41,430 bases of DNA from Deltaproteobacteria bacterium (GTDB taxonomy: Bacteria > Desulfobacterota > Desulfobulbia > Desulfobulbales > Desulfurivibrionaceae): assembly GCA_026388735.1 (NCBI GenBank), contig JAPLJG010000028.1, forward strand, positions 1 to 41,430, read 5' to 3'. The notes beneath the pieces are model-generated. The model saw only the letters and a list, made by a program, of their open reading frames with translations, made no database searches and was not told the DNA's origin. This document shows positions 10,642-40,382 of this stretch, one piece after another (the first letter of the stretch is position 1; the number at the start of each line of letters is the position of its first letter). The translations under genes were made by a program, and so were the position numbers.

Positions 10642-12780
10642 ATGGCAAGAGATCGACGCCAAGCACATCGGAGCGGCAGCAGCACGTTCCGGCAGGCTGG
10701 TTTCGTGGTCGGGCTGCTGGGGGGCTTGGCTGTGGCCGTGGGTCTGTATGAGCCCGGCGCCGACTTTGCCGTTGTCGCCATGATCCTTGCCGGGTTGGTC
10801 CTGATCTTTGCCCTGCTGGAGATGCGGCAGGGAGGAGACGATTCTCCGGCGGAGTCTTCTTTTTTCGGCACGGCCGGGCCTCTGCTCTGGGCCGTTGTCG
10901 CCTGGATTCTTTTCCGTTATTTCGGAGAGGGTACTCCCCAGTTGATTCTGCTCCCGGTCGGACTCATCGGCTGGCTGGCCATTAGTTTTCCCATGCAGGC
11001 TCTGCTCGTGCCTGTTTTGGCCGTGCTCGGCATGGAGGCAGGGTTATGGGCCATGGGCTTTCAAAAAACCGCCGGGCTGGCAGGCAATCTGGTGGCCTAT
11101 GCCGCCGCCGGGGTGGGGCTCAGTGTTTTCATGAGCAGTAAGGCATACCGCCAACGGATGCGAAAGGCCCTGATCCGGGCCAAAAGGGACACCGCCAGTC
11201 GGCAGTATGCCCGGGATCTTGGCCTGTTTGCCGAGACGCCCGATATTCTCAGTGCCCTGCCGGATTTCGATCTCATCGATGATCCGGAGGCTGGCAGTCA
11301 GCCCGCCGTGAAAACCATCGCCGCAGCCTTTGACCTGCAACTGGAACTCATCCGCCAGACCCTGACCCTGTCAACGGTGGCCCTGCTGTGGCCGGACCCG
11401 GAGGGCCAAGAATATCGGCTGCGCAGTATTGCCACCATCAGAAAAGATATAGCCCCTGGGCCGTTTGGGGTAGGGGTCGGTATCACCGGGGCGTTGCTGG
11501 GGGTGGAGGAGATGGTGAGTCTTGCCCCTGCCACCCCTTCCTTGGGCGTCCCCTATTACCTGAACCAGATTGAGGTGGGAGGGATTCTCGCGGTCCGTCT
11601 TCCCGATGACGCGGAGGAGTGGCTCGGGTTTGACGACAAGAAGATCGCCCCGCTTCTCTGCGTGGATCGGCCCGGTCAGCAACCTTGGACCGAGGCGGAA
11701 AAAGCGATCATGACCCTGACCGCGCGCAAGCTCGCCCTTGACGTGAACATGGGCAGGCAGTTTCAGGCCATGGCCCATGAGCGCAGCGCCATCCAGCGGG
11801 TTTGTCTGGCCATGCGGGAGCTGAACGGGGCCTTGGGGCTTGAACAGGTGCTGGGGGCCACGATCAAGGCGGTGCGGACTCTGGTGGGTGCTGATTTTAT
11901 CTCCATCAGCCTGGTTTGCGGCAACGGGCATTGTGTGGCCCTGGCCGAGGGCGAAGGGGCGGAGCAACTCATGGGCCGTGAGTTTTCCCGAGAAGAGGGG
12001 CTGGTGGGCCAGGTGCTTAAGATCAACCGGCCTCTGCCGGCCAAGGCCCAGTGCCATGGGCCGACCCAGGTTTTCGGCCACGATCATCTGCTCACCGGCT
12101 ACAATTCGCTGCTGATTCTGCCCCTGCAAAAGGAAAAAGGAGAGGCAACCGGGGCGCTCACCGTGGCGGTGAAAAAAGCGGAGGTCTTTACCAAGGCCCG
12201 GCAGGAGATTCTCGAACTCATCGCCGCCCAGGTTGCGGTCAAGATCGATCTGGGGCAGGCCCATGAGGAGATCAACCGGCTGGCCACCATCGACGGACTC
12301 ACCGGCTTGCTCAATCACCGCACCTTTCAGCACGGCTTTGAAGTGATGCTGGCTCGGGAGGAGCGGCGGGCTGGGGCCTTGAGTCTGCTCATCTGCGATA
12401 TAGATCATTTCAAGAAGATCAATGACAGCCATGGCCATCCCTTTGGCGACAAGGTTCTCAAGGAAGTGGCTGCTATCCTGCGCCGGGCGGCGCGTAGCGT
12501 GGATATTGCGGCCCGGTACGGCGGCGAGGAATTTGCCCTTGTGCTGGAAGGCTCCGGCGAACAGGGAGGTCTACAGATGGCCGAGCGCATCAGGCAGGAG
12601 ATCGAAAACATGGTGCTCCATAACGAAAATGGGCCGGTGCAGATTACTCTATCCCTTGGGCTTGCCGTTTATCCCGACCACGGCACGGACAAGGAGCGCC
12701 TGATCAGGCGGGCCGACCAGGCCTTGTATCGGGCCAAGAAACAGGGGCGCAATCGGGTGGTTCTCTGGGAGAAGGAATGA
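10642..12780 (+). CDS. Membrane GAF-GAF-GGDEF diguanylate cyclase
   Basis: 712-residue protein with four or more membrane helices (residues 15-170), two GAF-like regions (about 235-385 and 395-545) and a C-terminal GGDEF domain (about 555-710). The catalytic motif is GGEEF near residue 628. The inhibitory site RSVD lies in the correct place before it, so the enzyme should make c-di-GMP with product inhibition. There is no EAL domain. The start has GAGGGGAAT before the ATG. It follows the hydrolase by 15 bp. The GAF ligand is unknown. It is one of three GGDEF proteins in the window. Confidence 0.93.
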   Translation: MARDRRQAHRSGSSTFRQAGFVVGLLGGLAVAVGLYEPGADFAVVAMILAGLVLIFALLEMRQGGDDSPAESSFFGTAGPLLWAVVAWILFRYFGEGTPQLILLPVGLIGWLAISFPMQALLVPVLAVLGMEAGLWAMGFQKTAGLAGNLVAYAAAGVGLSVFMSSKAYRQRMRKALIRAKRDTASRQYARDLGLFAETPDILSALPDFDLIDDPEAGSQPAVKTIAAAFDLQLELIRQTLTLSTVALLWPDPEGQEYRLRSIATIRKDIAPGPFGVGVGITGALLGVEEMVSLAPATPSLGVPYYLNQIEVGGILAVRLPDDAEEWLGFDDKKIAPLLCVDRPGQQPWTEAEKAIMTLTARKLALDVNMGRQFQAMAHERSAIQRVCLAMRELNGALGLEQVLGATIKAVRTLVGADFISISLVCGNGHCVALAEGEGAEQLMGREFSREEGLVGQVLKINRPLPAKAQCHGPTQVFGHDHLLTGYNSLLILPLQKEKGEATGALTVAVKKAEVFTKARQEILELIAAQVAVKIDLGQAHEEINRLATIDGLTGLLNHRTFQHGFEVMLAREERRAGALSLLICDIDHFKKINDSHGHPFGDKVLKEVAAILRRAARSVDIAARYGGEEFALVLEGSGEQGGLQMAERIRQEIENMVLHNENGPVQITLSLGLAVYPDHGTDKERLIRRADQALYRAKKQGRNRVVLWEKE

Positions 12781-15096: not shown

Positions 15097-16521
15097 ATGG
15101 ATAGCAGTGATTCTTCACAAATACTTATTCTGCTTGTCGAAGATGATGTCGGCGATGCCCTGCTTGTGCAGGAAATGCTCTCGGAAATCAAGGCCCCTCG
15201 TTTTATCGTGACCCATGTCGACCGGGTTGCCAAGGCCATGGCCCAACTCCGGGAAGCGCGGTTCGGGGTTATCCTCCTTGATCTTTCGTTGCCCGACGGC
15301 CAGGGAATGGATCTGGTCAAGGCGGTGCGACTGGCAGCGCCCGAAACGCCCATCGTGGTGATGAGCGGCCAGCGGGATGACGATCTTGCCCTCAAGATTG
15401 TTCAGGAAGGGGTGCAGGATTATTGTGTCAAGGGGCATGTCGACAGTTTTCTCCTTACGCGTACCCTTCAGTATGCCATTGAGCGCAAGCGCATCGAGGA
15501 TGCCCTGCGTCGGAGCAACACCGAGCTGGCCGTACTGTTTCATGTTTCCTCCACGGTAAGCCGCTGTATCGATATGCAGGGGCTTCTTGCCGATATTATT
15601 GGCTCGCTTGCCGGAATGGAGATTCTTAGCCTGAAATGGCAGGGTGCCATCCTGACGGTTGAAGATGACGGGTCTCTGCGGCTTGCCCAGGAATTGGGTC
15701 ATTCTCCGGCCTTTATCGAAGCGCATCAGCGTCTGCACGGCGGCGAATGCCTGTGCGGCGTGGCCGTGGAGAGCGGGGAGATGGTGGTTTCGTCCGATGC
15801 CTTTCAGGATGCGCGTCATACCCTTCGCTATGCCGGCATGGAGCCCCATGGTCATATTATTATTCCCCTCAAATCAAGAGAACGGGTCGTTGGCATTCTC
15901 TGTCTTGATACCGTGCCGGGAATCTCGGTGCGAGAGGGCGAGCGAAAACTGCTGCTTTCCATCGGTGAACAGGTCGGCATTGCCGTTGCAAACGCCAGGC
16001 TTTATGAGGAAACCAGGCGACTGGCGCTCCATGATTCACTCACCGGACTAGCCAATCGGCGGCACCTGGATATCATGGCCGAAAGCAATCTTGCCAGGGC
16101 CCGTCGCCATGGCACCCCCTTTGCCATCATCCTGCTCGATCTCGATCATTTTAAACGTTACAACGATACCCACGGCCATAGCGCCGGGGATCAGCTTCTG
16201 GTGGCAGTGGCCAATACCATGAAACATGAGGTGCGGGAGACCAGCCTTGTGGTGCGCTATGGTGGCGAGGAGTTTTTGGTTCTGCTCTCGGATACGGAGA
16301 TTACTGCGGCTTTGGCGGTGGCGGAGAGGATCAGGCTCAAGATTCAGGAAAATACCGGCGTCACCGTGAGCCTGGGGGTGTCGTGGGCCAAGGATGCAGA
16401 CCGCTCGCTGGCCGCATTGATTGCCGAGGCCGATGCGGCGCTTTATCAGGCGAAAAATAGCGGGAGAAACAGGGTGGCCCGTGCCGAAACGCGGCAAAAT
16501 GGGGAGGACGTGCATGGCTGA
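15097..16521 (+). CDS. Response regulator: receiver-GAF-GGDEF diguanylate cyclase
   Basis: 474-residue soluble protein. The N-terminal receiver has the acidic pair in LVEDD and the phosphoacceptor Asp in LLDLSLPDG (near residue 62). A GAF domain (about 150-310) follows, with a Cys pair in GGECLCG. The C-terminal GGDEF domain carries GGEEF near residue 390. The inhibitory site reads RETS instead of RxxD, so product inhibition is probably lost. Phosphorylation by one of the kinases downstream would switch on c-di-GMP synthesis. The stop overlaps the start of the first solute-binding gene by 8 bases, which ties the cyclase to the operon. I chose ATG 15097, just before the receiver; the frame is open to 15031. 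Confidence 0.93.
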   Translation: MDSSDSSQILILLVEDDVGDALLVQEMLSEIKAPRFIVTHVDRVAKAMAQLREARFGVILLDLSLPDGQGMDLVKAVRLAAPETPIVVMSGQRDDDLALKIVQEGVQDYCVKGHVDSFLLTRTLQYAIERKRIEDALRRSNTELAVLFHVSSTVSRCIDMQGLLADIIGSLAGMEILSLKWQGAILTVEDDGSLRLAQELGHSPAFIEAHQRLHGGECLCGVAVESGEMVVSSDAFQDARHTLRYAGMEPHGHIIIPLKSRERVVGILCLDTVPGISVREGERKLLLSIGEQVGIAVANARLYEETRRLALHDSLTGLANRRHLDIMAESNLARARRHGTPFAIILLDLDHFKRYNDTHGHSAGDQLLVAVANTMKHEVRETSLVVRYGGEEFLVLLSDTEITAALAVAERIRLKIQENTGVTVSLGVSWAKDADRSLAALIAEADAALYQAKNSGRNRVARAETRQNGEDVHG

Positions 16522-17575
16522 TTATCGTCTCAGGACAAGCAAGGGTGTGGTCGGAGTTGCGGGGGCAGCGGGAAAGTTTCTGGTCGGGTTTCTGGTTGCG
16601 GTTGCGCTGATGGTTGTTGGCTGCAAGCAGCGTCCAGAGGAAGCAACCAAGCCGACGTCTGTGACGCTGGAATCGGTTGCGCTCTGTCGCTCCACGACGG
16701 CCCTGCTGCCCATGGTGGTGGCTGAGAAGCAGGGCTTTTTTGCCGAACAGGGGCTTACGGTTACGGTTCGAGAGTCCATTATGGGCAAGGAAGCATTGGA
16801 GGGCATGCTCAGGGGAGAATGCGACTTTGCCACCGCCGCTGAGCCGCCCGTGGTCGAATACGCCCGGCAGCGGGATGATTTTCGTCTGCTTGGCGCGTTG
16901 CAAAATTCGGACAATCTGAATCGCATCGTAGCCCGGGCCGATCGGGGCATTGCTAAGCCGGAGGACCTGCGCGGCAAACGGATCGCCACAGCTAAGGGAA
17001 CCGCCCCACACTATTTTCTGGAGCTGTTTCTTGAAAAGCATGGCCTGGAGCCCAAGGATATTAAAATCGTTTTCATGAAATCAGACGAGTTGTTGGCGGC
17101 GCTTACCAGCGGTCAAGTCGATGCCGTCTCCATGACTAACAATATTGTAACCAAAGCCCAGCAGGCATTGCAGGCCAATGCGGTGCTTATGGAGGAGCCG
17201 GGTTTGTGTCGCAATTATTACTTGCTTTTGGCGACCACGAATCTGCTTGAAAAACGTCCAGAGGTGGTGGCGCGGTTTCTTCGGGCCTTGCTCAAAACCG
17301 AGGAGTTTATCAAGCAAAAACCTGATGAAGCATTGGCCATTGTTCTGGCCAGCCAAGGCCAGAAGGAATCTTCTGCGGAGATCAAGCAACTTCTTGCTGG
17401 CTATCAATATCGATTGAGCTTGGAACATAGCATGCTGATGGGCTTGGAGGATATGGCCCGCTGGACAGGCCAACAGGCCGGGGAGAGTCAACGTTCTATC
17501 CCTAATTTTCTCAATCTGATTGCTGCGGAACCACTGCGAACAGTGAAACCGGAAGCCGTCAGGCTTGAAAAATAG
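16514..17575 (+). CDS. Solute-binding lipoprotein 1 (NMT1/SsuA-like)
   Basis: 353-residue periplasmic binding protein of the NMT1/THI5, SsuA/TauA type, whose relatives bind sulfonates, nitrate or pyrimidine precursors. The N terminus has a basic start, a hydrophobic helix and a lipobox VVGC with Cys37, so it should be anchored as a lipoprotein. The core opens with VALCRSTTALLPMVVAEKQGFFAEQGL, followed by GMLRGECDFATAAEPPVV and RGKRIATAKGTAPHYFLELFLEKHGL. Start ATG 16514 has GGGGAGG upstream and overlaps the cyclase stop by 8 bases. No permease or ATPase gene is nearby. The downstream neighbours are a paralogue and a kinase, which suggests a sensory role. Confidence 0.92.
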   Translation: MADYRLRTSKGVVGVAGAAGKFLVGFLVAVALMVVGCKQRPEEATKPTSVTLESVALCRSTTALLPMVVAEKQGFFAEQGLTVTVRESIMGKEALEGMLRGECDFATAAEPPVVEYARQRDDFRLLGALQNSDNLNRIVARADRGIAKPEDLRGKRIATAKGTAPHYFLELFLEKHGLEPKDIKIVFMKSDELLAALTSGQVDAVSMTNNIVTKAQQALQANAVLMEEPGLCRNYYLLLATTNLLEKRPEVVARFLRALLKTEEFIKQKPDEALAIVLASQGQKESSAEIKQLLAGYQYRLSLEHSMLMGLEDMARWTGQQAGESQRSIPNFLNLIAAEPLRTVKPEAVRLEK

Positions 17576-17585
17576 GAGTCCGATC

Positions 17586-18626
17586 ATGTTCTGTTATTCC
17601 TCATATTCATGCCTTTCGCAGGCAGCGTGTCATCGGTTTGTGGTTGCGAGTCTTGTGTTGCTCACAATGGTTTCCGGCTGCAAGCAGAAAGATGAGACCC
17701 CTTCCTCAGGGGTACCGGTCGTGCCTATTGCCGTAACCATTTGCCATGGCAGCGTGACCGACATTCTGCCCCGTATTGCCCTGGAACAGGGCTATTTTGC
17801 CGAGGAAGGTCTTACGGTTACGCTCAAGGACCTCGATGGCAAGCTGGCCTTTGACGGCATGCTCAAGGGAGAGTGCAATTTTGCTGTGAGCGGGGCGCCG
17901 CCCATCGTTTTGGCCGATCCCAAAGTCACCCCATTCGCCATCCTGGCCACGCTGTTGTCCGACGATGATTCCACCAGGATTGTCGCCCGTCGCGACCATG
18001 GTATTGCCACACCTCAGGATCTCAAAGGCAAGCGAATCGGGGTTAAAAAAGGGGTTAATGGCCATCTTTTCCTCGATTTGTTTATGATGAAGCATGGCTT
18101 GGCGCAGAACGAGGTTTATCAAGTGTTCATGGATTCGGATAAGCTTCAATCCGCCTTGGCCAATGATGAGATCGACGGGTTTTCCATGACCAACAAAATG
18201 GCCAATGCTACAGCCAGAACCCTTGGTGACAAGGGGGTGGTCTTTGCCGAGCCTGGGCTGAACACTATCCATGCCATCCTCACGACCCGGCTTGATATCC
18301 CGCTCAACCTGCAAGTTGTCTCCAGAGTACTGAAAGCCATGGTTCGGGCAGAGCAGTACGCGAAGCGCGAGCCCGCAGCAGCCAAGGGGGTGGTGGCCAA
18401 GGCAGCGGCCCTGCCCGCCCAGGAGCTTGAAGAGATTTGGTCCCGCTCCACCATCGAGGTGGCCTTGGCCAACCCTCTCTTTGTCCATCTGGAAGATCAG
18501 TACCGCTGGCAGATGGAGCGAGGCGGATCGCCTGGGCCTGCAACCATGCCCAATTACCTGGGCCTTGTTTTTCCGGAGTATCTGCGCGCTATCAAGCCGG
18601 ATGCTGTTTCGGTCGCCAAGCGCTGA
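17586..18626 (+). CDS. Solute-binding lipoprotein 2 (paralogue of 1)
   Basis: 346-residue paralogue of the preceding protein, with the same layout: lipobox VSGC, then ICHGSVTDILPRIALEQGYF, GMLKGECNFAVSGAPPIV and KGKRIGVKKGVNGHLFLDLFMMKHGL. Shared motifs and a 10 base gap point to tandem duplication followed by divergence. Residues lining the ligand pocket differ (for example CRSTTAL versus CHGSVTD), so the two may bind different ligands. Start ATG 17586 has AGGAG 7 bases upstream. Ten bases after its stop comes the sensor kinase. Confidence 0.92.
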   Translation: MFCYSSYSCLSQAACHRFVVASLVLLTMVSGCKQKDETPSSGVPVVPIAVTICHGSVTDILPRIALEQGYFAEEGLTVTLKDLDGKLAFDGMLKGECNFAVSGAPPIVLADPKVTPFAILATLLSDDDSTRIVARRDHGIATPQDLKGKRIGVKKGVNGHLFLDLFMMKHGLAQNEVYQVFMDSDKLQSALANDEIDGFSMTNKMANATARTLGDKGVVFAEPGLNTIHAILTTRLDIPLNLQVVSRVLKAMVRAEQYAKREPAAAKGVVAKAAALPAQELEEIWSRSTIEVALANPLFVHLEDQYRWQMERGGSPGPATMPNYLGLVFPEYLRAIKPDAVSVAKR

Positions 18627-18635
18627 GGGGTCACA

Positions 18636-21053
18636 GTGAAGATACGGTGTAAACTCATTCTGGTTGGCGTAATTCCTGTGTTTTTGCTGCTGACATTGAC
18701 CGCGGTTTTCCTTTTTGCGACCAACAAGGTGGACCGCATCAACCACAAGGCCATTGTTGCCGATGAGATTGCGACGACTCTGGGCGATCTGTCCATTTTG
18801 ACCTATGAGCATCATATCTATTTCGAGGACCGTGCCCACGTTCAGTGGGTGGAAAAATATGCCTTCCTTGGTAAGCAGCTGGAAAAGGAGGGGGCGCTCT
18901 ACGATACGGCCGAGGAAAAAGAGCTTCTGGAGCGAATCCTGCGCGCGTCGCGAACTCTGGCCTTCCTCTTTGCACAGTACGGACCCCCACCCAGCCAAGG
19001 CCAAGGGATACGGCAAACCGAACAGGGCAAAAGTTTTCATGAGCGGATTACGGCCCGGATTCTTCAGGAACTGGCAGTGGCCAGCCCTGCGGCGGATGCT
19101 CTCCATGAGTTGAATCATGAGCGTGCCCGTGCCCTTTCCAGGCAGATCGCGTTGGTAAGCATCCTGGTGGTCGGAGGCGTCGCCATCTTCATGCTGGTCA
19201 TCTCCTTTTTGGCCATCCGCGCCTTTACGGTGCCGGTGGGGAAGTTGAGCGATGCTTTTGCCGCAGTCAGCATCGGTGATTTTGGCCACCGCATCAGCAG
19301 CTCGGCCAAGGACGAACTGGGCAGCCTCTCCCGGGGCTTTGACAATATGGCCCAACGCCTTCAAGAGAGCAGCGATTCATTGCATCGTCTGAACCTCGAA
19401 TTGGAGCAGCGGGTGGCGGCGCGCACCGAAGATCTGTCGTACGCCAATGCGGAGTTGAAGTTGAATGAAGAGCGGCTGGCAGTCCTGCTTGCCCTCAGCC
19501 AGAGGGAGTTTGCGACCGAGGTGGAATTAATCCGCTATGCCCTGGAGGAGGCGGTGCGGCTCGCACGCAGCAAGGTCGGCTATCTGCATTTCTTCAATGA
19601 AGACCAGCAGACCCTGGGGCTTTTTCAATGGTCCGAGGCGGTTATGGGGTTCTGCACTGCGACGAAAACTCCGCATTATCCCTTGCAGGATGCCGGGGTT
19701 TGGGCTGATTGTGTGCGGCAGCGCCAGCCGGTGGTGCATAATGATTACCAGAATCTGGCGAAGAAAAAAGGCCTGCCCGAAGGCCATTTTCCCCTGTCGC
19801 GGCACTTGAGCCTGCCCATTTTTGATGGGGAGAAGATCGTCGCGGTTCTCGGGGTCGGCAATAAGGACGAGCCCTATGATGCGGATGATATCCGGCAGCT
19901 TATCCTGTATATGCGCAGCACCTGGGAGATGGTCAAGCGCAAGCGGGTGGAGATTCAGCTTGCTGAGTCGGAACAACGGTATCGCACCCTTTTCAACGAG
20001 TCGCCGGAAGGCATTGTGCTGATCGATACGGAAACCGGCAAGGCGCTTGAGTTCAACGACGTCGCCCACCAGCAGTTGGGTTATAGCAGAGAAGAGTTCG
20101 CGGTGCTCACGGTCGCGGATTACGAGGCCAAGGAGGATGCCGAGGAGATCAGGGAACATTTTGAAAAAATTAAACGTCTGGGCAAGGAGAACTTTGCGAC
20201 CCTGCATCGGACTAAGTCCGGAGAGATCAGAAATATAGCGGTGTCAAAACAGTCCTTGCTCCTTGGCGAGCGGCAATACCTTTACGCCATCTTCCGGGAC
20301 ATCACCGAACTGCGCCAGGCTCAGGAGAGGTTGAAAGAATACGCCCAATCCCTGCAACGGAGCAATAAGGAGCTGGAGCATTTCGCCTACGTGGCTTCCC
20401 ATGATTTGCAAGAGCCGCTACGCAAGATCGGCAGCTTTACCGAGCTGCTGGCCCGGAAATATCAGGGGAGGCTGGACGAAAAGGCCGACGTTTACATCGG
20501 CTACATTGTCGATGGTGCGCAGCGGATGCAGATTTTGATCAACGATCTGCTTGCCTTTTCTCGGGTAACCACCAAGGGGAACGAGTTTGCCCCGGTTGAC
20601 TGTAACGCGCTTCTGGCGAGGGTGCAGCAGGATCTTGAGCTGGCCCTCAAGGAGAGCGGGGCCCGGCTCAGCGTGGCCGATCTGCCGACGGTCATGGCGG
20701 ATGCGGTGCAGCTTGGCCAGGTGTTTCAGAATCTCATCGGCAATGCCGTCAAGTACTGCGCTGCCGGGCAGGCCCCGGAGATTGCCGTGGCAGCGGTTGC
20801 GCGCGATGGCGATTGGCTTTTCTCGGTGCAGGATAGCGGAATCGGCATAGACTCGCAGCATTTCGAGCGGGTTTTTCAGCTTTTTCAACGCTTGCACACC
20901 CGGGAGGAATACTCGGGCACTGGCATCGGCCTGGCGTTGTGCAAGAAGATCGTCGAGCGGCATGGCGGGAAGATTTGGATTGAGTCGGCTGCGGGGAAGG
21001 GGGCGACCTTTTTCTTCACCGTGCCCCGTGCGCTGGGTCAGAAAGAGGCGTGA
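18636..21053 (+). CDS. Sensor histidine kinase, HAMP-GAF-PAS-HisKA
   Basis: 805-residue membrane kinase. Helix 1 (about 7-29), a periplasmic loop (30-165), helix 2 (about 167-192), HAMP (about 195-245), coiled coil, GAF-like domain (about 285-435), PAS (445-565), HisKA with the phosphoacceptor in VASHDLQEPL (near His589), and an ATPase domain with N, G1 (DSGIGID) and G2 (GTGIGLALCKK) boxes. The HisKA type is the phytochrome-like one that often pairs with single-domain Rcp1-like receivers, and two receivers lie downstream. The small periplasmic loop could touch the solute-binding lipoproteins encoded on both sides. Start is GTG with GAGGGG upstream. Confidence 0.93.
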   Translation: MKIRCKLILVGVIPVFLLLTLTAVFLFATNKVDRINHKAIVADEIATTLGDLSILTYEHHIYFEDRAHVQWVEKYAFLGKQLEKEGALYDTAEEKELLERILRASRTLAFLFAQYGPPPSQGQGIRQTEQGKSFHERITARILQELAVASPAADALHELNHERARALSRQIALVSILVVGGVAIFMLVISFLAIRAFTVPVGKLSDAFAAVSIGDFGHRISSSAKDELGSLSRGFDNMAQRLQESSDSLHRLNLELEQRVAARTEDLSYANAELKLNEERLAVLLALSQREFATEVELIRYALEEAVRLARSKVGYLHFFNEDQQTLGLFQWSEAVMGFCTATKTPHYPLQDAGVWADCVRQRQPVVHNDYQNLAKKKGLPEGHFPLSRHLSLPIFDGEKIVAVLGVGNKDEPYDADDIRQLILYMRSTWEMVKRKRVEIQLAESEQRYRTLFNESPEGIVLIDTETGKALEFNDVAHQQLGYSREEFAVLTVADYEAKEDAEEIREHFEKIKRLGKENFATLHRTKSGEIRNIAVSKQSLLLGERQYLYAIFRDITELRQAQERLKEYAQSLQRSNKELEHFAYVASHDLQEPLRKIGSFTELLARKYQGRLDEKADVYIGYIVDGAQRMQILINDLLAFSRVTTKGNEFAPVDCNALLARVQQDLELALKESGARLSVADLPTVMADAVQLGQVFQNLIGNAVKYCAAGQAPEIAVAAVARDGDWLFSVQDSGIGIDSQHFERVFQLFQRLHTREEYSGTGIGLALCKKIVERHGGKIWIESAAGKGATFFFTVPRALGQKEA

Positions 21054-21082
21054 CGGATTGGTTAACAGACGAGGGGGCAACC

Positions 21083-22072
21083 ATGGCTAAGCCACAAAAA
21101 AGTACAACCAGAACGACTTGCAAGGTGTTGTGTCTGTTGTTCCTCGTCGTCGGCAGTGCCTTGGCGTTCAACGGGTGTGCACAGCGTCAGGAACCGCTGC
21201 TGCGCGTTGCCTCCAATGTCTGGCCCGGGTACGAAACGCTCTATCTGGCGCGCAGTCTCGGATATTACGATGACAAGAACATCCGCCTCGTGGAAATGCC
21301 CTCCACTAGCCAGGGTTCGCAAGCGCTGCGCAACGGCATGATCGAGGCGGCCTGTCTGACCCTTGATGAGGTGCTCTCGTTGATGCAGGACGGGATGGAT
21401 TTACGGGTTGTGCTGGTCATGGATGTTTCCCTAGGAGCGGATGTGTTGATGGCCAGGCCGGGGATCGACACCCTGCAAGCACGCCGCGGCAAAAGGATCG
21501 GCGTCGAGAACGCTGCGGTGGGCGCGGTTATGCTGGACGCAGCGCTCCAGGCTGGGGAGCTTCGGGCACAGGATGTAACCATCGTCCCGTTAACGGTGAA
21601 TGAGCATGCTGCTGCTTATCTCGCGGGCAAGATCGATGCAGTCGTAACCTTTGAGCCGGTGCGCAGTCAGCTTCTCAAGGCGGGCGCTAGGGTTCTTTTC
21701 GATAGCTCGCAGGTTCCGGGCCGGATCGTTGATGTGCTCGTGGTGCGCTCGGAGATTGCCGCTGCCCATGCTGAGGCGCTCAAGGAATTGCTGAAAGGGC
21801 ACTTCCGGGGGATAGAGTATCTTGCCAGTCAGCCACAAGACGCTGAGAAGAGAATGGCCCCACGTTTAGGAGAAAAGGCTCTTGCGCAGTTTACTGGCCT
21901 CAACCTGCCGGATCTCAAGGAAAATCGGGCGTTGCTTGGCGGTAATCCTCCACCCCTGAAGAGCACAGCCCGTGGCCTAGTCGATCTCATGCTTCACCGG
22001 AAACTGTTGCAAAGGCCAGTTTCTGTAGAGCGCCTTGTCGATCCGTCCTTTCTTCCCGAGGGGAATAAATGA
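21083..22072 (+). CDS. Solute-binding lipoprotein 3 (SsuA/NMT1-like)
   Basis: 329-residue periplasmic binding protein with lipobox FNGC. The mature part opens RVASNVWPGYETLYLARSLGYY, typical of the SsuA/TauA/NMT1 fold but from a different branch than proteins 1 and 2. It continues with MIEAACLTLDEVLSLMQDG and RRGKRIGVENAAVGAVML. Start ATG 21083 has GAGGGGGCAACC before it; a GTG at 21050 overlapping the kinase stop is an alternative. Its stop overlaps the hybrid kinase start by four bases (ATGA), the tightest coupling in the cluster. This suggests that binding protein and kinase work together. Confidence 0.92.
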   Translation: MAKPQKSTTRTTCKVLCLLFLVVGSALAFNGCAQRQEPLLRVASNVWPGYETLYLARSLGYYDDKNIRLVEMPSTSQGSQALRNGMIEAACLTLDEVLSLMQDGMDLRVVLVMDVSLGADVLMARPGIDTLQARRGKRIGVENAAVGAVMLDAALQAGELRAQDVTIVPLTVNEHAAAYLAGKIDAVVTFEPVRSQLLKAGARVLFDSSQVPGRIVDVLVVRSEIAAAHAEALKELLKGHFRGIEYLASQPQDAEKRMAPRLGEKALAQFTGLNLPDLKENRALLGGNPPPLKSTARGLVDLMLHRKLLQRPVSVERLVDPSFLPEGNK

Positions 22073-24795
22073 ACAACTTTCCCACCATCCGCTTGCGCCT
22101 CTGGCTTCCGATTCTGGTTTTTGGGGCATTTAGTCTGCTGCTTATAGCCTTCTCATTTCATGAGTACCGTCAGGATGAGAGCAATATCGTAGAAGAATCG
22201 CTCACGTCCCTAAAAGAGAGTCTTGCCCGGGCAGATATCAGGTTCGAAGCTCTCCTGAGAAATGGCATGGACAGCCTTGTTGAAGTTGATATCGCTGACA
22301 TGAGCCTTTCGGAAGAGATTCGGTCGATTGTGTTTGTCGATGAGCAGGGACTTGTTCTCTATGGGTCACAAATGGGATGGCGGGGCCGTCCTGTATATGA
22401 AGTGCTGCCTGCCTTCGACCGCAATCGTTTTCTTGCCGCCCAGGAAACCCGAAGGCCGGATATCCGTTTGTCATCCGATGGCAATGCCATTGCAGCCTAC
22501 CAGCCGGTGGTGCTCACACTCTCTGTGGAATCCGGCCAGATTCGTGCCACACGGGTTGGCATGATTTTCGTTGGTTACGACCTGTCCCGCAGCAAGGCAA
22601 GGCTTTTACGGGTCATGGCTGTAAACAGCCTTTTTGTCTGGGCTGTTGGTATATGCCTGATGTTGGCCCTCTGGGCGTCGCTGAGTCGTTGGCTGACGCG
22701 GCCACTCTCCCACCTTAAAAATATAGTTATCCGCTTCAGCAACGGTGAGGATCTTGTCAGGGCTGACGTCACCGGTAGCGGTGAGTTGAGCGAGCTGTCC
22801 CAATCCTTTAACGCCATGGCCGATGCGGTGCTCAGAAACAGCGCCCGGCTCCAGGCGGTGCTGAATTCCGCCACGGAGTATGCGATCATCGCCACTGATT
22901 TGCACGGAGTCATTACCGTGTTCAACCATGGGGCAGAGCGAATGCTCGGCTACACGTCCGAGGAAGTGGTTGGTCAACAGACCCCGCTACTCTGGCATCT
23001 TGACTCCGAGATCAGCGCTAGGGGCGAGGGGTTCAGCAGGATACTGGGCCGCCCGGTGAGTGGTTTTGCGGTGTTTACCGAGATTGCCCAGCAAGAGAAG
23101 ACGCTGGCGGACGAGTGGACCATGGTCCGAAAAAACGGAACCCAGCTGAATGCCCGGCTCGTTGTGACGCCAATACTGGACGAGAATAAGAAGATCGCCG
23201 GCTATCTCGGGATCGTGGAAGACATCTCCGAGCGAAAGCAATCCGAGGAATTCATCAAAAACATTCTCGAATGCGTTGACGAGGGATTTGTCGTCATCGA
23301 CCGTGATTTTCGAATTCTGTCCGCGAACAAGGCGTACTCGCAGCTATTCGAGAAGCCCATGGAGGAGATCACTGGCAAGCACTGTTACGAAATTTCCCAC
23401 CATGCTTCGGTGCCCTGTTTTGAAGCTGGTTGCGATTGCGCGGTCAAAAAAGTGTTCGAGACAGGCCAGCCTCATTCTGCCACGCATAAGCATAAGGATG
23501 CACAGGGAGAGGCTGTTTTTTTTGAGACCAAAGCCTATCCTTACGCGAAAGACAGTGCAGGCGAGGTGATCACCGCGATCGAAACGCTGGTCGACATCAC
23601 GGAACAGCACACCCTCGAAGAACAACTCCGCCAAGCCCAGAAGATGGAAGCCATCGGCACCCTGGCTGGCGGCATAGCCCACGATTTCAACAATATCCTT
23701 TCTCCGATCCTAGGCTACAGCGAAATGGTTGTGGAACAGTTGCCTCCCTCCGGCAAGGAGCGCGGCATGGTGCTGGAAATCCTGAAGGCAGGGGGCCGGG
23801 CCAAGGAACTGGTCAAGCAGATCCTCACCTTCAGCCGTCAGAGCGAGCAGCAGCGCCATCCGCTCCAGATCCACCTGGTCGTCAAGGAGGCGCTCAAGCT
23901 TCTGCGTGCCTCAATCCCCACCACCATTACGATCCATCAGGATGTCGCGGATTGTGGCATGGTAATGGCTGATCCGACCCAGATCCATCAGGTGCTGATG
24001 AACCTCTGCACCAACGCCTACCACGCCATGCGGGAGACCGGCGGAGAGTTGAGCGTCAGCCTGTCGGTGGTGGAGATTACGGCGCAGGATTATCTGGATA
24101 ACCTGGCATTGCAGCCAGGCCCGCATGTGAAATTGATCGTCCGGGACACCGGCTGCGGCATGTCCAAGGAGCTTCAGGAACGAATCTTTGAGCCCTATTT
24201 CACTACGAAGAAGCCAGGGGAGGGAACAGGGCTGGGGTTGTCGGTGGTGCATGGCATCGTGCGGAGTCACCAAGGCCATATCACCATGTACAGCGAGCCG
24301 GGCCAGGGCACCGCGTTTCATGTTTACCTGCCTCAGGTGCAGTTGCAGGCCGAGGGGATTGTCGAGGAGGCCGTGGCAATCCCGCAGGGGAGCGGCACCG
24401 TTTTGGTGGTGGACGATGAGGAGGCCATTTGTCAGATGCAACAACAGGTGTTGCGCAGCCTGGGCTACGAGGTGGTGCTCAGCTCCAGCGGGCCCCAGGC
24501 ATTGGAGGCCTTCCAGCAGGAGGGAGCGAGGATTGATCTGGTCCTCACCGACATGACCATGCCCGGCATGAACGGGGCGGAGCTGGCCCGGCGGATCAAG
24601 CAGCTCAGCCCGGCCACGCCGGTGATTCTCTGTACCGGGTTCAGCGATATCATGGATGAGGAAAAGGCCAAGCGAATGGGGATCGACGCCTATCTGCTCA
24701 AGCCGATCATCAGGCGCCAGCTTGCCCAGACGCTTTATGAGGCTCTGCAGAAAAAGGGTGCGTCAGTTCAGGAAGATGCGTGGCAGATTATTTAA
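22069..24795 (+). CDS. Hybrid sensor histidine kinase, HAMP-PAS-PAS-HisKA-receiver
   Basis: 908-residue membrane hybrid kinase: helix 1 (about 8-27), a periplasmic domain (28-185), helix 2 (187-207), HAMP (210-260), PAS 1 (265-390), PAS 2 (395-510), HisKA with [11 protein letters not shown] (near His538), ATPase domain, and a C-terminal receiver with LVVDDEE and [11 protein letters not shown] (phosphoacceptor near 829). PAS 2 has a cysteine-rich stretch ([19 protein letters not shown]) of the type seen in PAS domains proposed to bind metal or haem. The start overlaps the stop of solute-binding protein 3 (ATGA). Phosphate could pass to the receiver genes that follow or to the cyclase at the start of the operon. 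Confidence 0.93.
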
Positions 24796-24818
24796 CCAAG
24801 AAGAGGGGAGAGGGAACC

Positions 24819-25259
24819 ATGGCTAGCCCACATAGAATAGACATCCTGCTGGTGGAAGACGACCCCGGCGATGTAGAATTGACCAAGGAGGGGCTGCTGG
24901 CCGCCAAGATGCTGGTCACGCTCCATGTGGTGGAAGATGGGGAAAAGGCTTTGAAGTTTCTGAGGCAAGAAGCGCCTTACATCGAGGCGATCCAGCCGGA
25001 CATTATCCTGCTCGATCTCAATATGCCGAAAAAAAATGGCATGGAGGTGTTGAGGGAGATCAAGGCTGATCCCGCTCTCCGCTCCATCCCCGTGGTTGTC
25101 CTGACCACCTCGGAGGCGGAGACCGATATCGCCAAGTGCTACGACCTGGGCGCCAACTGCTACATCACCAAGCCGATCAGTTTTGCGGCCTTTACCAAGG
25201 TGGTGGCCATGATCGAGGAGTTCTGGTTTACCATTGTGAAAATGCCGCCCAAAAAATAG
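24819..25259 (+). CDS. Single-domain response regulator, Rcp1-like
   Basis: 146-residue receiver with no output domain. Acidic pair in LLVEDDPGD, phosphoacceptor in LLDLNMPKKNG (near Asp67), the TTS switch, and the conserved Lys in ITKPIS. The layout matches Rcp1-type regulators that work with phytochrome-like kinases such as the one at 18636-21053. It probably shuttles phosphate or acts by protein contact. Start ATG 24819 has AGAGGGAACC upstream; an earlier in-frame ATG at 24780 overlaps the hybrid kinase and has no ribosome site. Confidence 0.93.
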   Translation: MASPHRIDILLVEDDPGDVELTKEGLLAAKMLVTLHVVEDGEKALKFLRQEAPYIEAIQPDIILLDLNMPKKNGMEVLREIKADPALRSIPVVVLTTSEAETDIAKCYDLGANCYITKPISFAAFTKVVAMIEEFWFTIVKMPPKK

Positions 25260-25334
25260 GTCGGGCGGGGCAAGGTTTTTTTTAAGATTGTCGTTTCACA
25301 ACGGTAATGATTCCAACGGAGAGAAGGTGCCGCT

Positions 25335-25946
25335 ATGGTAATGAGGGTTCTCCTTATAGAAGACGATCCGGCCGATGCGTTTCTCATCCAGGACATGCTG
25401 TTGGAATCGACGGCTGGCAACGCCGTTGTCCAGCATGTTACTCGGCTTGAGGAGGGGATACTCCAGTCCGACGAGGAGGGGTTTGATATCATCATCTCCG
25501 ACCTTGGCCTGCCGGACAGCCAAGGGCTGGCCACTGTCACGGCGTTGGCCTCGGCGGCGAAGCATCTTCCCTTTATCGTGCTGACCGGCCTGGCGGATCA
25601 TGGGGTCGGTCTTGCGGCGGTGAACGCCGGAGCCCAGGATTATCTGGTCAAGGGAAAGGTCACTGGGGAGATGTTGGTCCGCGCCATCCGTTACGCCATT
25701 GAACGCAAGAGGATCGAAAACGAAAAGGCGAAGGTCATAGTCGAGCTACAGGAGGCATTGGCAAAGGTGAAACTGCTGAGTGGGTTTCTCCCGATTTGCG
25801 CCTCCTGTAAAAAGATCAGAGACGATAAGGGATATTGGCGGCAGATTGAATCGTATATCAGCGAGCATTCCAACGCGGAGTTCAGCCATTCCATCTGTCC
25901 GGAATGTTCCCATCGACTTTACCCGGAGTTGTACCCGGAGGGGTGA
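25335..25946 (+). CDS. Response regulator with C-terminal CxxC/CxxC domain
   Basis: 203-residue protein: receiver (1-120; LIEDDPAD, SDLGLPDSQG), a short coiled coil (125-145), then a conserved C-terminal module (about 147-200) that starts LSGFLPICASCKKIRDDKGYW and ends with ICPEC. The two CxxC pairs could bind a metal. This module is common at the ends of delta- and other proteobacterial kinases and regulators, but its function is not settled. Start ATG with GGAGAGAAGG upstream. It is the last intact gene of the signalling operon. The next 385 bases in the same frame hold a broken peroxiredoxin-like gene. Confidence 0.9.
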   Translation: MVMRVLLIEDDPADAFLIQDMLLESTAGNAVVQHVTRLEEGILQSDEEGFDIIISDLGLPDSQGLATVTALASAAKHLPFIVLTGLADHGVGLAAVNAGAQDYLVKGKVTGEMLVRAIRYAIERKRIENEKAKVIVELQEALAKVKLLSGFLPICASCKKIRDDKGYWRQIESYISEHSNAEFSHSICPECSHRLYPELYPEG

Positions 25947-32284: not shown

Positions 32285-32971
32285 ATGGATAAAACATTTA
32301 TTTCCATAAAGGGTGTGGCGGAAAAGCTGGGTGTTTCCGAGAAGACCATCTATCGTATGGTGAGCGATAACCAGATTCCCTTTGCCGTGAAGATCGGCGG
32401 GCAATGGCGCTTCAAGGCCGACGAGGTGGTTGACTGGATCGATAGCCAGAAACCGGGCGTCGCCGCACCCCGCAAAAAGACGGATTATCGCATCTCCCTG
32501 GCCGAGGCTCTGGAAAACGGCGCAGTTCTTTATCGCATCCACGGCACGAACCGTGATGAAGTTATTGATGAGCTGCTGGCGGCCCATCCCTATACCGCGA
32601 ATTTTGATGCCAAGGGGATCAAAATTTCCTTGCTGTCGCGTGAGTCGGTGGTGTCCTCCTCCATGGATGGCATTGCCTGGATGTGCCCCGACCCGGCCCT
32701 GCCGGTCTACCTGGAAAAGAGCATGGTGATTCTCGCCTTTCTCGAAAAGCCGGTGGACTTCAAGGCGTTGGACAACCGGAAGACCGAACTGCTTTTTCTG
32801 GTGCTGCCCGCCAACAACACCGAACTGGCCATCCTCGAACGTAAATTGTGGCGGCTTTCCATGTCCGCGCCCTTTCTGGCCGGGATCAGAGAGCAGCTGA
32901 CTCGCAAGAAACTGCTCGAGTTCATTGCCGCAGAGGAATCGATGATTTTTCAACAAAGGCCCAGCGTATGA
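32285..32971 (+). CDS. Transcription regulator: excisionase-type HTH plus EIIA-like domain
   Basis: 228-residue protein. Residues 1-54 are a helix-turn-helix of the MerR/excisionase type (SIKGVAEKLGVSEKTIYRMV, then WRFKADEVVDWID). Residues about 68-215 resemble the fructose/nitrogen PTS EIIA domain. EIIA proteins accept phosphate on a histidine in the motif GIAIPH; here the same place reads GIAWMC (129-134), so the histidine is lost and the domain cannot be phosphorylated in the usual way. It may sense by binding only. Its stop overlaps the HyfB-like start (ATGA), so it belongs to the Ehr operon and very probably regulates it. Confidence 0.9.
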   Translation: MDKTFISIKGVAEKLGVSEKTIYRMVSDNQIPFAVKIGGQWRFKADEVVDWIDSQKPGVAAPRKKTDYRISLAEALENGAVLYRIHGTNRDEVIDELLAAHPYTANFDAKGIKISLLSRESVVSSSMDGIAWMCPDPALPVYLEKSMVILAFLEKPVDFKALDNRKTELLFLVLPANNTELAILERKLWRLSMSAPFLAGIREQLTRKKLLEFIAAEESMIFQQRPSV

Positions 32972-34950: not shown

Positions 34951-34975
34951 AAAGAGAATTAACGAGAGAACCGTG

Positions 34976-35884
34976 ATGCTCCAACTGTTCCTGCACCTTC
35001 TCCTGCTACTGGGCCTTTCCCCTCTCTTGCCAGGGGTGATCGGCAAAACCAAGGCTCTCTTTGCCGGGCGAACCGGCCCCCCGTTTCTGCAGTCCTACTA
35101 TGACATCTGGAAACTGTTCGGCAAGGGTCTGGTCATCAGCCGCACCACCACCTGGGTTTTTCGGGCGGGGCCGGTACTCGGCCTTGTCGTGCCGGTGCTT
35201 GCCGCGCTCATGGTTCCCTTTGGCTCCATAGGGGCGCCTATTTCCTTTGCCGGCGACCTGATCTTCTTTGTCTATCTTTTCGGGCTGTCCCGTTTTTTCA
35301 CGGCCAGCGCCGCCCTGGACACCGGCTCCTCCTTTGAGGGCATGGGCGCGGCTCGCGAGGTCACCTTTGCCTGTTTGGCCGAGCCGACTGTTTTTTTCTC
35401 CTTCATTGTTTTGGCCCGGCTTTCCGGTTCGCTTTCCCTGGACGTCATGTTCGGTCAAGCCCTGAATACGGCCTGGCAGAGCGCGGGGCCCTCCCTGATT
35501 CTGGTCGTGGCCTGCCTGTTTGTTGTGGTCCTGGTGGAAAATTGCCGCATCCCCTTTGACGACCCCAATACCCATTTGGAACTGACCATGATCCATGAGG
35601 TGATGGTTCTGGATCACAGCGGTCCTGATTTCGGCATGATTCTCTATGGCGCCGCCATGAAGCTTTTTGTCCTGGGGGCGCTGGTCGTTCGCCTCGTGTT
35701 TCCTGGCTCAACCGGGAATGTATGGTTCGACACCCTGCTGTTTAGCGGCGGAATGCTGCTTCTGGCCGTGGTCATAGGGGTGGTTGAATCCACCATGGCG
35801 CGGTTGCGACTGCTGCGGGTGCCCCAACTGCTGGTCGGAACCTTGCTGCTTTCTTTTTTTTCGCTGATCCTGCTCTTGAGGTAA
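34976..35884 (+). CDS. HyfC/HycD-like membrane subunit (NuoH family), Ehr complex
   Basis: 302-residue protein with about eight helices, equivalent to HyfC/HycD and NuoH. It links the catalytic arm to the membrane ion pumps. Typical segments are PPFLQSYYDIWKLFGK near the N terminus, FEGMGAAREVTF in the middle and VENCRIPFDDPNTHLELTMIHEVM near residue 200, the loop that faces the quinone-like cavity. Start ATG 34976; a GTG one codon earlier is possible. 25 bp after HyfB. Confidence 0.94.
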   Translation: MLQLFLHLLLLLGLSPLLPGVIGKTKALFAGRTGPPFLQSYYDIWKLFGKGLVISRTTTWVFRAGPVLGLVVPVLAALMVPFGSIGAPISFAGDLIFFVYLFGLSRFFTASAALDTGSSFEGMGAAREVTFACLAEPTVFFSFIVLARLSGSLSLDVMFGQALNTAWQSAGPSLILVVACLFVVVLVENCRIPFDDPNTHLELTMIHEVMVLDHSGPDFGMILYGAAMKLFVLGALVVRLVFPGSTGNVWFDTLLFSGGMLLLAVVIGVVESTMARLRLLRVPQLLVGTLLLSFFSLILLLR

Positions 35885-35887
35885 GGA

Positions 35888-36532
35888 ATGGACAATTATA
35901 ATCCGGCCAATCTGCTGTTGTTGCTGGTCATCCTGTTCAACTTCTTTCTCCTGGGGAGCAGCCGTCTGAATGCTTGCATCCGGACCGTGGCCATCCAAGG
36001 TGGCATCCTCTCGTTGCTGCCCCTTTTTATCCACGGGTTTTCCGGTCATTCCCTGTTCCTGGCCGGCGGGGCTTTTCTGCTCAAGGGGCTTGCCATCCCC
36101 TTTTTGCTTCTCAGAGCCATCCGCCAGGTGCATATCCGTCGGGAAATGGAGCCGTTGATCGGGTATGTTCCGACCCTCCTTTTGGGCACTCTTGCCACGG
36201 CCGGTGCTTTTATTTTCAGCGACCGGCTGCCGCTTATCGAGGCGCACCGTGGCTCACTTTTTATCCCGGTCGGTCTGGCCACCCTGGCCACCGGGTTTCT
36301 CATGCTCATCACCCGGCGTAAGGCCATCACCCAGGCCCTTGGTTACCTGATCTTTGAAAACGGGGTCTTCATTTTCGGCATGCTCCTGGCCGAGGCCATG
36401 CCCCTTATGGTGGAGGCCGGGGTACTTCTTGATCTTTTGGTTGCGGTTTTTGTCATGGGGATTGTCATGCATCAGATCAACCGGGAATTTTCCAGCATGA
36501 ACACCGGCCAGCTTTCTTCCTTGAGGGAATAA
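35888..36532 (+). CDS. HyfE-like membrane subunit, Ehr complex
   Basis: 214-residue membrane protein with six or seven helices. It matches HyfE, a fusion-like relative of NuoK, in position, length and pattern (LLLRAIRQVHIRREMEP, YLIFENGVFIFGMLLA). Start ATG 35888 with AGGTAAGGA directly before it, 3 bp after HyfC. Confidence 0.9.
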   Translation: MDNYNPANLLLLLVILFNFFLLGSSRLNACIRTVAIQGGILSLLPLFIHGFSGHSLFLAGGAFLLKGLAIPFLLLRAIRQVHIRREMEPLIGYVPTLLLGTLATAGAFIFSDRLPLIEAHRGSLFIPVGLATLATGFLMLITRRKAITQALGYLIFENGVFIFGMLLAEAMPLMVEAGVLLDLLVAVFVMGIVMHQINREFSSMNTGQLSSLRE

Positions 36533-36533
36533 C

Positions 36534-39502: not shown

Positions 39503-39514
39503 AGGAACAACAGC

Positions 39515-40267: not shown

Positions 40268-40382
40268 CTATCCAGCAGCACCGCATCTGCTTTGGAGTAT
40301 AGCGAATCAATCTCTTTCGCGCATCTGCGGCGCGGCGGAACAGTTACCAACAAATGAACTGAAGAGAGGGGGGACAGGAGAT

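What the first reader, a model, noticed from the sequence alone, without database searches (positions are those of the whole stretch)
15097..25946. Transporter-free cluster of solute-binding lipoproteins, kinases and a diguanylate cyclase
Eight genes run in one direction with overlaps or short gaps: receiver-GAF-GGDEF, two paralogous NMT1/SsuA-like lipoproteins, a histidine kinase, a third lipoprotein, a hybrid kinase, two receivers. The lipoprotein and kinase starts overlap or lie within 10-30 bases. No permease or ATPase is present, although such binding proteins normally serve ABC uptake. The likely logic is ligand binding by anchored lipoproteins, kinase control, and c-di-GMP output through the GGDEF protein, whose inhibitory RxxD site is lost (RETS). 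Overlap of cyclase and first lipoprotein genes (8 bases) and of lipoprotein 3 and hybrid kinase (ATGA) supports joint function. This may be an undescribed sensory system.
Basis: partly seen in the sequence, partly recalled or inferred. Interest (0 to 1): 0.82.

Follow-up and report, generated by a model that had tools for sequence, protein, structure and literature searches.

The report
Lipoprotein-fed kinase sensors without a transporter
These bacteria appear to have turned nutrient-uptake binding proteins into membrane-anchored sensors that report to partner kinases instead of feeding a transporter, and the same partnership recurs in many related bacteria.

Summary
Eight co-directional genes encode REC-GAF-GGDEF, three NMT1-fold lipoproteins (LP1-3), kinase HK1, hybrid kinase HHK and two receivers; no SsuC/TauC-type permease was found in the 91.6%-complete assembly. 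LP1/LP2 belong to a family that splits from transport proteins. Of 84 members in fetched loci, 0 lie near such a permease and 72 precede a kinase with HK1's periplasmic domain (58 within 300 nt); without the 19 profile rows, 0 and 55 of 65. All 20 lower-scoring relatives lie near the permease, none before that domain. In 30 pairs the lipoprotein tree tracks the periplasmic domain (r 0.79), not the catalytic core (r 0.27); cores are swapped among HisKA, HisKA_3 and HisKA_2/HWE types. The domain models as a four-helix bundle. LP3-HHK is a cassette in a slot between HK1 and RR1 that is empty in four of eight loci and holds another lipoprotein-kinase pair in one. The cyclase is optional (5 of 9 loci), so c-di-GMP output is plausible, not core. 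Best reading: dedicated binding-protein/kinase sensors, working like TorT-TorS, XylFII-LytS or LevQRST but a different, apparently undescribed Desulfobacterota family. Ligand, binding and phosphotransfer are untested.

The parts
15097..16521 (+). DGC: receiver-GAF-GGDEF diguanylate cyclase, motif GGEEF intact, inhibitory site RETS
   Evidence: Pfam; I-site; optional in relatives
16514..17575 (+). LP1: NMT1/SsuA-fold lipoprotein, sensory LPA family
   Evidence: Pfam PF09084 124 bits; below SsuA_fam cut-off, 133 vs 163.5; lipobox VVGC
17586..18626 (+). LP2: paralogous NMT1-fold lipoprotein, the one adjacent to HK1
   Evidence: Pfam; AlphaFold2 pLDDT 91, nearest TauA/SsuA; lipobox VSGC
18636..21053 (+). 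HK1: TM-periplasmic helical domain-TM-HAMP-GAF-PAS-HisKA-HATPase (GTG start)
   Evidence: Pfam
18636..19220 (+). HK1 periplasmic sensor region (aa 1-195), no Pfam family, modelled as a four-helix bundle
   Evidence: found downstream of 72 of 84 LPA members
21083..22072 (+). LP3: NMT1-fold lipoprotein of a separate branch
   Evidence: Pfam; own clade, SH-aLRT 100; lipobox FNGC
22069..24795 (+). HHK: hybrid kinase, periplasmic region (aa 1-205, no Pfam family)-HAMP-PAS-PAS-HisKA-HATPase-receiver
   Evidence: Pfam; ATGA overlap with LP3; pair with LP3 in 8 loci
24819..25259 (+). RR1: single-domain receiver
   Evidence: Pfam; conserved downstream of the kinase(s)
25335..25946 (+). RR2: receiver with a Cys-rich C-terminal tail; receiver 46% identical to that of DGC over 125 aa
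   Evidence: Pfam; compare

Best explanation
The cluster encodes binding-protein-dependent sensor kinases. LP1 and LP2 are former uptake (SsuA/TauA-like) binding proteins that lost their transporter, became membrane-anchored and capture a small solute in the periplasm. Ligand-dependent closure changes how they sit on the four-helix periplasmic bundle of the HK1 dimer; TM2 and HAMP carry the change to the kinase core, which phosphorylates RR1 and RR2 and, where present, the receiver of the cyclase. LP3-HHK is a second, separately evolved binding-protein/kinase input inserted in front of the same receivers. Shown computationally: gene anatomy, no permease found, the lipoprotein-sensor-domain linkage, their co-divergence, interchangeable kinase cores, and the slot. 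Inferred: direct binding, direction of the signal, phosphotransfer targets, c-di-GMP output. Unknown: the ligands.
For: Neighbourhoods: 84 LPA members in 64 fetched loci, 72 upstream of the HK1-type sensor domain on the same strand within 2.5 kb, 58 within 300 nt (47 of these 14-29 nt between the two profile matches), 0 with a SsuC/TauC-type permease in the stretch. Leaving out the 19 members that built the profile: 55 of 65, 49 within 300 nt, 0 of 65. Of 20 members scoring 80-188 bits, 20 have the permease and 0 the sensor domain; 7 of these 20 supplied the permease profile, so 13 of 13 independent ones. Co-divergence, n=30: lipoprotein vs sensor r 0.785, vs catalytic core 0.266; thinned to 22 distant pairs 0.54 vs -0.02; sensor beats core in 1000 of 1000 subsamples. 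Cores by my own profiles: HisKA 33, HisKA_3 12, HisKA_2/HWE 5, unassigned or truncated 8 of 58; nine of ten downstream genes confirmed as kinases in Pfam. Tree: sensory LPA group SH-aLRT 100. Lipobox by crude pattern in 49 of 84 sensory vs 2 of 20 transport members. Fold: LP2 pLDDT 91, nearest TauA/SsuA; sensor pLDDT 91, nearest NarQ. Natural NMT1-kinase fusion in the same order (L026). SsuC/TauC-type permease not found in 11 of the 13 LPA-bearing genomes tested (of 49 LPA-bearing).
Against: No binding, ligand or phosphotransfer data. The 188-bit cut was set after seeing the scores and lies in a narrow gap (L060 189 bits with a kinase, L059 183 with a permease); the transport group was sampled only down to E 1e-25. 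12 of 84 members lack the sensor domain downstream in that scan: L044, L131, L112, L157 (two) and L151 lie 2-1563 nt from a contig end (L157 has a weak truncated match there, L131 a fragment on the other strand); L053 is degraded; L049 and L159 look orphan; L060 has another kinase; L050 and L143 have kinases whose sensor match is weak. The search from the sensor side is largely circular: 18 of its 19 hits over 130 bits were in the model's own alignment; of the 7 hits not in it, 3 follow an LPA gene and 4 (49-98 bits) do not. Foldseek support for the sensor is weak (NarQ E about 1e-3; LytS of XylFII-LytS 0.04; QseG-QseE 0.22), usual for helical bundles. Lipobox +2 residues are K, K and A, which by the E. 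coli sorting rule (recalled) would suggest the outer membrane; the rule may not hold here.
Confidence: 0.83

Rival explanations
1. Shared binding proteins: LP1-3 deliver substrate to an ABC permease encoded elsewhere and the kinases merely regulate that uptake.
For: BctC serves transport and signalling at once (passage in PMC9602780). G015 and G041, which carry the cluster, each have one SsuC/TauC-type permease (G041's match is weaker, E 2.6e-24).
Against: None of the 6 PF00528 hits in the own genome is of that type, and the dedicated model finds none; it finds none in 11 of 13 LPA-bearing genomes tested. In G015 the permease sits with its own, distinct binding protein (L062). 0 of 84 family members lie near one. 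Assemblies are incomplete (75-98% for these 13), so single absences are not proof.
Confidence: 0.08
2. One integrated c-di-GMP switch: all eight genes form an obligate circuit whose output is the feedback-insensitive cyclase.
For: 8-base overlap of cyclase and LP1 in the window, L042, L044 and L045 (17 in L043); cyclase receiver 46% identical to RR2; loss of the inhibitory RxxD aspartate in 5 of 5 intact cyclases.
Against: Cyclase absent in L046, L047 and L104 and only a remnant in L103, while LP1-LP2-HK1-RR1-RR2 stay. LP3-HHK absent in 5 of 8 loci, four with an empty slot and one with another pair.
Confidence: 0.3
3. Genomic hitch-hiking: lipoproteins and kinases are neighbours only by shared operon history, without physical interaction.
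For: Adjacent genes co-diverge by common descent in general.
Against: The catalytic core in the same polypeptide shows no such co-divergence once near relatives are thinned (r -0.02 vs 0.54, n=22), and the family occurs over 19 family codes with three kinase types.
Confidence: 0.06

Closest known systems
TorT-TorS, LuxP-LuxQ, XylFII-LytS (binding-protein-activated sensor kinases)
   Same: Periplasmic binding protein read by the periplasmic domain of a kinase (passages in PMC6321045); the LytS domain is a weak fold match to HK1 (E 0.04)
   Different: Binding proteins of other families (type I periplasmic binding proteins: recalled); here NMT1/SsuA-type lipoproteins and a sensor domain without Pfam family
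LevQRST of Streptococcus mutans
   Different: Gram-positive sugar system; LevS has up to five predicted TM segments and little exposed part
CuaD-CuaS-CuaR of Ruminiclostridium cellulolyticum
   Same: A lipoprotein binding protein, distinct from the transport one, binds the kinase (passages, PMC10384115)
   Different: Controls an ABC transporter operon (cuaABC-cbpA); cellobiose binder, not NMT1 (recalled)
SsuA/TauA uptake binding proteins
   Same: Nearest fold and sequence family
   Different: Those come with SsuBC/TauBC; LP1-3 score under the SsuA_fam cut-off (133, 82, 105 vs 163.5) and no such permease was found
PcpI-type and 9smy sensor domains
   Same: By sequence the periplasmic part of the HK1 family matches a solved 158-aa HAMP-protein fragment (9smy, E 2e-5) and an ancestral PcpI domain (9snn, E 1e-3)
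   Different: PcpI (if the same protein as in PMC9543091) is a chemoreceptor that binds salicylate directly; no binding protein for it was found there (passages)
NspS-MbaA of Vibrio cholerae
   Same: Transport-type binding protein coupled to c-di-GMP signalling (recalled; only a reference title seen)
   Different: Acts on a membrane GGDEF-EAL protein, not through a histidine kinase (recalled)

Membership tests
Binding-protein-dependent three-component sensor system | Solute-binding protein gene adjacent to a transmembrane sensor kinase | tested here: met
   72 of 84 LPA members, 55 of 65 outside the profile; LP3-HHK in 8 loci
Binding-protein-dependent three-component sensor system | Cognate response regulator encoded alongside | tested here: met
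   RR1 in 9 of 9 and RR2 in 8 of 9 window-type loci with sequence beyond the kinase (W, L042, L045, L046, L047, L053, L070, L103, L104); not counted for the wider family; pairing itself not tested
Binding-protein-dependent three-component sensor system | Binding protein physically engages the kinase sensor domain | not testable with these tools
   Only indirect: co-divergence and a natural fusion
Binding-protein-dependent three-component sensor system | A ligand controls the kinase through the binding protein | not testable with these tools
   No ligand known
SsuA/TauA/NrtA-type ABC uptake system | Permease and ATPase encoded with the binding protein or elsewhere in the genome | tested here: not met
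   None in the cluster; no SsuC/TauC-type permease found in the genome; assembly 91.6% complete
SsuA_fam (TIGR01728) | Score over curated cut-off 163.5 | tested here: not met
   133.2, 81.7, 104.8
Pfam sensor domains (Cache, PAS, 4HB_MCP and others) | Pfam match to the periplasmic part of HK1 or HHK | tested here: not met
   0 families for HK1 1-192 and HHK 1-214 at E 0.01; one HK1 relative (L048) has a sub-threshold 4HB_MCP_1 match, 16 vs 27 bits
Feedback-insensitive diguanylate cyclase | Intact GG(D/E)EF with lost RxxD | tested here: met
   GGEEF with RETS; activity not tested

The most novel reading that the evidence does not exclude
A whole family of dedicated sensory lipoproteins, derived from SsuA-like uptake proteins, has co-evolved with an undescribed four-helix sensor domain across Desulfobacterota. 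Here two such lipoproteins jointly gate one kinase dimer, so that the kinase reads a ratio of ligands, and the position between HK1 and the receivers is an exchange slot into which different lipoprotein-kinase inputs are plugged, all converging on the same receivers and sometimes on a feedback-free cyclase.
Probability: 0.35. Interest if true: 0.8.

Novelty: new variant of a known kind. Interest (0 to 1): 0.62.

Why it matters
About ten cases of binding-protein activation of sensor kinases were counted as characterised in a 2022 paper (passage in PMC9602780). This family offers 58 adjacent lipoprotein-kinase pairs in which the presumed interacting halves co-vary while the kinase core is exchanged, a natural data set for mapping how a binding protein drives a kinase and for rewiring sensors. 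Such lipoproteins match uptake families and would easily be annotated as uptake proteins, so transport capacity may be over-predicted in these genomes (inference).

Tried and rejected
Considered and rejected: hidden uptake system (no SsuC/TauC-type permease found); a single obligate eight-gene circuit (cyclase and LP3-HHK optional); that members without a detected kinase use other outputs: ten downstream genes were scanned with Pfam, nine carry HisKA, HisKA_2 or HisKA_3 (L137 without a HATPase match) and one (L135) shows only HAMP and PAS. A longest-ORF caller chose antisense frames in this high-GC DNA and was replaced by codon-usage scoring. Plasmid homologues outside the phylum: 10 records at 26-30% identity; of five opened, four sit with ABC ATPase and permease and one has no annotation; no plasmid match for the HK1 sensor.

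Changed on re-checking: the search from the sensor side was first taken as independent support; 18 of its 19 strong hits were training rows, so it now counts for little and the main confidence was lowered from 0.85 to 0.83, with two rivals raised by 0.01 each.

Not resolved: ligand class; which membrane the lipoproteins sit in; whether the family occurs outside Desulfobacterota (the only genome-contig scan used a single protein and found seven close relatives). Near the 84 members only SsuC/TauC-type permeases were scanned for, not every transporter.

Rows dropped: the tree left out hits under 75 bits or 200 aa (142 rows kept). The LP alignment for folding used 81 of 84 (L053, L044, L112 left out). 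The sensor alignment used 59 for folding and 56 for searching (L051, L052, L166 left out). The core comparison used 30 of 58 pairs, those with a HisKA core longer than 170 aa. One place over the cut, the second copy in G464 (C292:64591-65517), was not fetched. At most 8 or 5 candidates per genome were scored, so members may be missed.
Full report
WHAT IS THERE. DGC overlaps LP1 by 8 bases, LP3 and HHK share ATGA, and other gaps are 9-75 bases. LP1 and LP2 are 38% identical and LP3 is 24% identical to LP1. All three have a lipobox by pattern. Upstream is an endonuclease/exonuclease/phosphatase gene, downstream a rhomboid gene on the other strand. Seven named relatives of LP2 are Deltaproteobacteria, Proteobacteria or Desulfobulbaceae metagenome assemblies, so the host is probably a Desulfobacterota member (inference).

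NO TRANSPORTER FOUND. The genome (G000, 91.6% complete) has five NMT1 matches, three being LP1-3. Its six PF00528 permeases are YejB/Opp, PstC, PstA, ModB, PstC and PstA types by NCBIfam. A model built from eight permeases next to NMT1 proteins in relatives (A5) finds nothing in G000. Of 13 LPA-bearing genomes tested (of 49), it matches in G015 and, more weakly, G041; it also matches in the positive control G011. In G015 that permease lies with its own binding protein (L062).

THE CORE AND ITS CASSETTES. Window-type loci were read in G005, G016, G006, G041, G003, G015, G007, G053, G221 and G222. The stable core is LP2-HK1-RR1, normally with LP1 and RR2. DGC is present in 5 of 9 loci with sequence upstream of LP1 (window, L042, L043, L044, L045), a remnant in L103, absent in L046, L047 and L104. 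The space between HK1 and RR1 could be read in 8 loci: empty in 4 (L042, L045, L046, L104), LP3-HHK in 3 (window, L047, L070), and a different lipoprotein-kinase pair in L103; degraded L053, not counted, is also empty. LP3-HHK also exists away from HK1 (L178, L179, L180, L187, L188) and keeps a 4-base overlap in 7 of 8 pairs (L187 has a 2-base gap). The position thus behaves like a slot for lipoprotein-kinase inputs in front of common receivers (inference from these loci).

A DEDICATED SENSORY FAMILY. Profiles of LP1/LP2 (A1) and LP3 (A2) were searched in the class (257 genomes), and A1 in a draw of the phylum (395 genomes); neighbourhoods were fetched. A1 matches over 188 bits occur in 22 of 257 and 29 of 395 genomes (G000 and G041 in both, 49 in all), over 19 family codes. 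Six-frame profile scans of 122 sources gave 84 members over 188 bits in 64 loci: 0 with a SsuC/TauC-type permease, 72 upstream of a kinase with the HK1-type sensor region, 58 of them within 300 nt. Nineteen of the 84 built profile A1; without them the figures are 0 of 65 and 55 of 65 (49 within 300 nt). The 20 members at 80-188 bits all have the permease (19 within 1.5 kb), none has the sensor region, and none has a kinase on the same strand within 3 kb by my kinase profile; seven of the 20 supplied permease-profile rows, leaving 13 of 13. The cut was set after seeing the scores: L060 (189 bits) has a kinase, L059 (183 bits) a permease. The 12 exceptions are listed under evidence against. For the LP3 family, 17 members over 250 bits have no permease and 14 have a same-strand kinase within 2.5 kb; of 20 members at 75-170 bits, 17 have the permease and L065, L197 and L203 do not. 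From the kinase side, 25 sensor-region hits were found in 21 of 257 genomes, but 18 of the 19 over 130 bits were in the model's own alignment. Of the seven others, three follow an LPA gene (G007, G013, G014) and four (G034 twice, G140, G123; 49-98 bits) do not. The search does show that no further strong copy without a lipoprotein was detected in the class.

PARTNER CO-DIVERGENCE. For the 58 adjacent pairs, lipoprotein and sensor-region tree distances correlate at r 0.67 (Spearman 0.45; largest of 1000 permutations 0.12). For the 30 pairs with a usable HisKA core the values are lipoprotein-sensor 0.785, lipoprotein-core 0.266, sensor-core 0.366. Thinned to 22 distant pairs they are 0.54, -0.02 and 0.03. 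In 1000 random 70% subsamples lipoprotein-sensor exceeded lipoprotein-core every time; in the thinned 58-set r is 0.49-0.58 with 0 of 1000 permutations as high. Cores are HisKA 33, HisKA_3 12, HisKA_2/HWE 5, unassigned or truncated 8 of 58 by my own profiles; ten downstream genes were checked in Pfam, nine being kinases. The unit of evolution is therefore lipoprotein plus periplasmic domain, with kinase cores exchanged beneath it. Common descent alone does not explain why the core in the same polypeptide fails to follow; saturation of core distances could contribute and was not tested.

TREE. In a quick maximum-likelihood tree of 142 rows the sensory LPA members form a group with SH-aLRT 100 (85 rows: 77 kinase-linked, 7 unassigned, and the long-branched L059, whose own permease and ATPase lie beside it). 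LP3 and its kinase-linked relatives form another (17 rows: 14 kinase-linked, 3 unassigned; 100). Two further kinase-neighbour rows (L065, L197) fall among transport rows on long or uncertain branches. The transport label needs 4 changes against 33.6 in shuffles. This fits at least two separate recruitments from transport proteins; deep branches are weak and rows were chosen by similarity to LP1-3. In a sister set of eight LP3-like genes, seven lie next to a kinase related to one with a fused phosphonate-binding-protein domain (Pfam-checked in L071 and L069), and the eighth (L186) next to a kinase fragment.

STRUCTURE. LP2 models at pLDDT 91 with TauA and SsuA as nearest folds. HK1 1-250 models at pLDDT 91 as long helices forming a bundle that runs into HAMP. 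Nearest solved folds are NarQ (E about 1e-3); the XylFII-binding domain of LytS (0.04) and the QseG-QseE complex (0.22) appear further down among other helical bundles. By sequence the family's periplasmic part matches one solved HAMP-protein fragment (9smy, 2e-5). The periplasmic parts of HK1 and HHK match no Pfam family. A natural fusion NMT1-PAS-HisKA-HATPase (L026) and an NMT1-PAS protein open at the locus end (L027) show that nature also joins the two halves.

MECHANISM. Most likely, ligand-bound LP1/LP2 alters its contact with the HK1 bundle and shifts the kinase/phosphatase balance toward RR1 and RR2; where the cyclase is present its receiver, 46% identical to RR2, is a plausible third target. 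Its inhibitory site is lost in all five intact copies, so activity would be limited by phosphorylation rather than product inhibition (inference). Twelve of 58 kinases have two or three lipoproteins within 2.5 kb in front; LevQRST of S. mutans is a precedent for two binding proteins on one kinase (passages).

RELATION TO THE KNOWN. It works like TorT-TorS, LuxP-LuxQ, XylFII-LytS, CuaDSR and LevQRST (passages). Physical binding and ligand control, the defining features of the kind, could not be tested. Searches for a description of NMT1-type sensory lipoproteins (listings and abstracts, with passages of six papers) found none; the library is open-access only and the 2021 review on this theme is not held, so 'undescribed' is provisional.

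Noticed in passing
L056:5846-10583 (own genome, contig 62): A weak PstS-family binding protein is directly followed by a TorS/BarA-like hybrid kinase and then a YejB-type permease: another binding-protein/kinase neighbour pair.
   Followed up: partly
L071:10454-12592 and L069:10809-13004: Kinases beside LP3-like genes carry a fused N-terminal phosphonate-binding (PhnD-type) domain, so a binding protein sits next to a kinase that has a binding-protein domain of its own.
   Followed up: partly
L049:8886-9923: In G013 an orphan LP2 without kinase lies just upstream of a gene set resembling the membrane-complex operon of window 32285-41428 by gene sizes and TM counts.
   Followed up: no
window 32285-41428: Complex I/Mrp-related membrane complex genes preceded by a HTH_17-PTS_EIIA_2 protein, an unusual regulator combination (three genes scanned).
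   Followed up: no
window 25740-25946; L046:5063-5584; L070:6436-6957: The Cys-rich tail of RR2 recurs (42% over 66 aa) on a 173-aa membrane protein near the cluster in two relatives.
   Followed up: no
window 10705-12780 and 2343-4298: Two further GGDEF proteins (five predicted TM-GAF-GGDEF with intact RSVD site; dCache-PAS-GGDEF) lie within 13 kb upstream.
   Followed up: no
L053:6410-7594: In G053 LP1 and LP2 are reduced to one chimaeric frame and HK1 to fragments, while RR1 and RR2 remain.
   Followed up: no
L065 and L197: Two LP3-like proteins (122-123 bits) lie near kinases without a permease yet group with transport proteins in the tree, possibly further recruitments.
   Followed up: no
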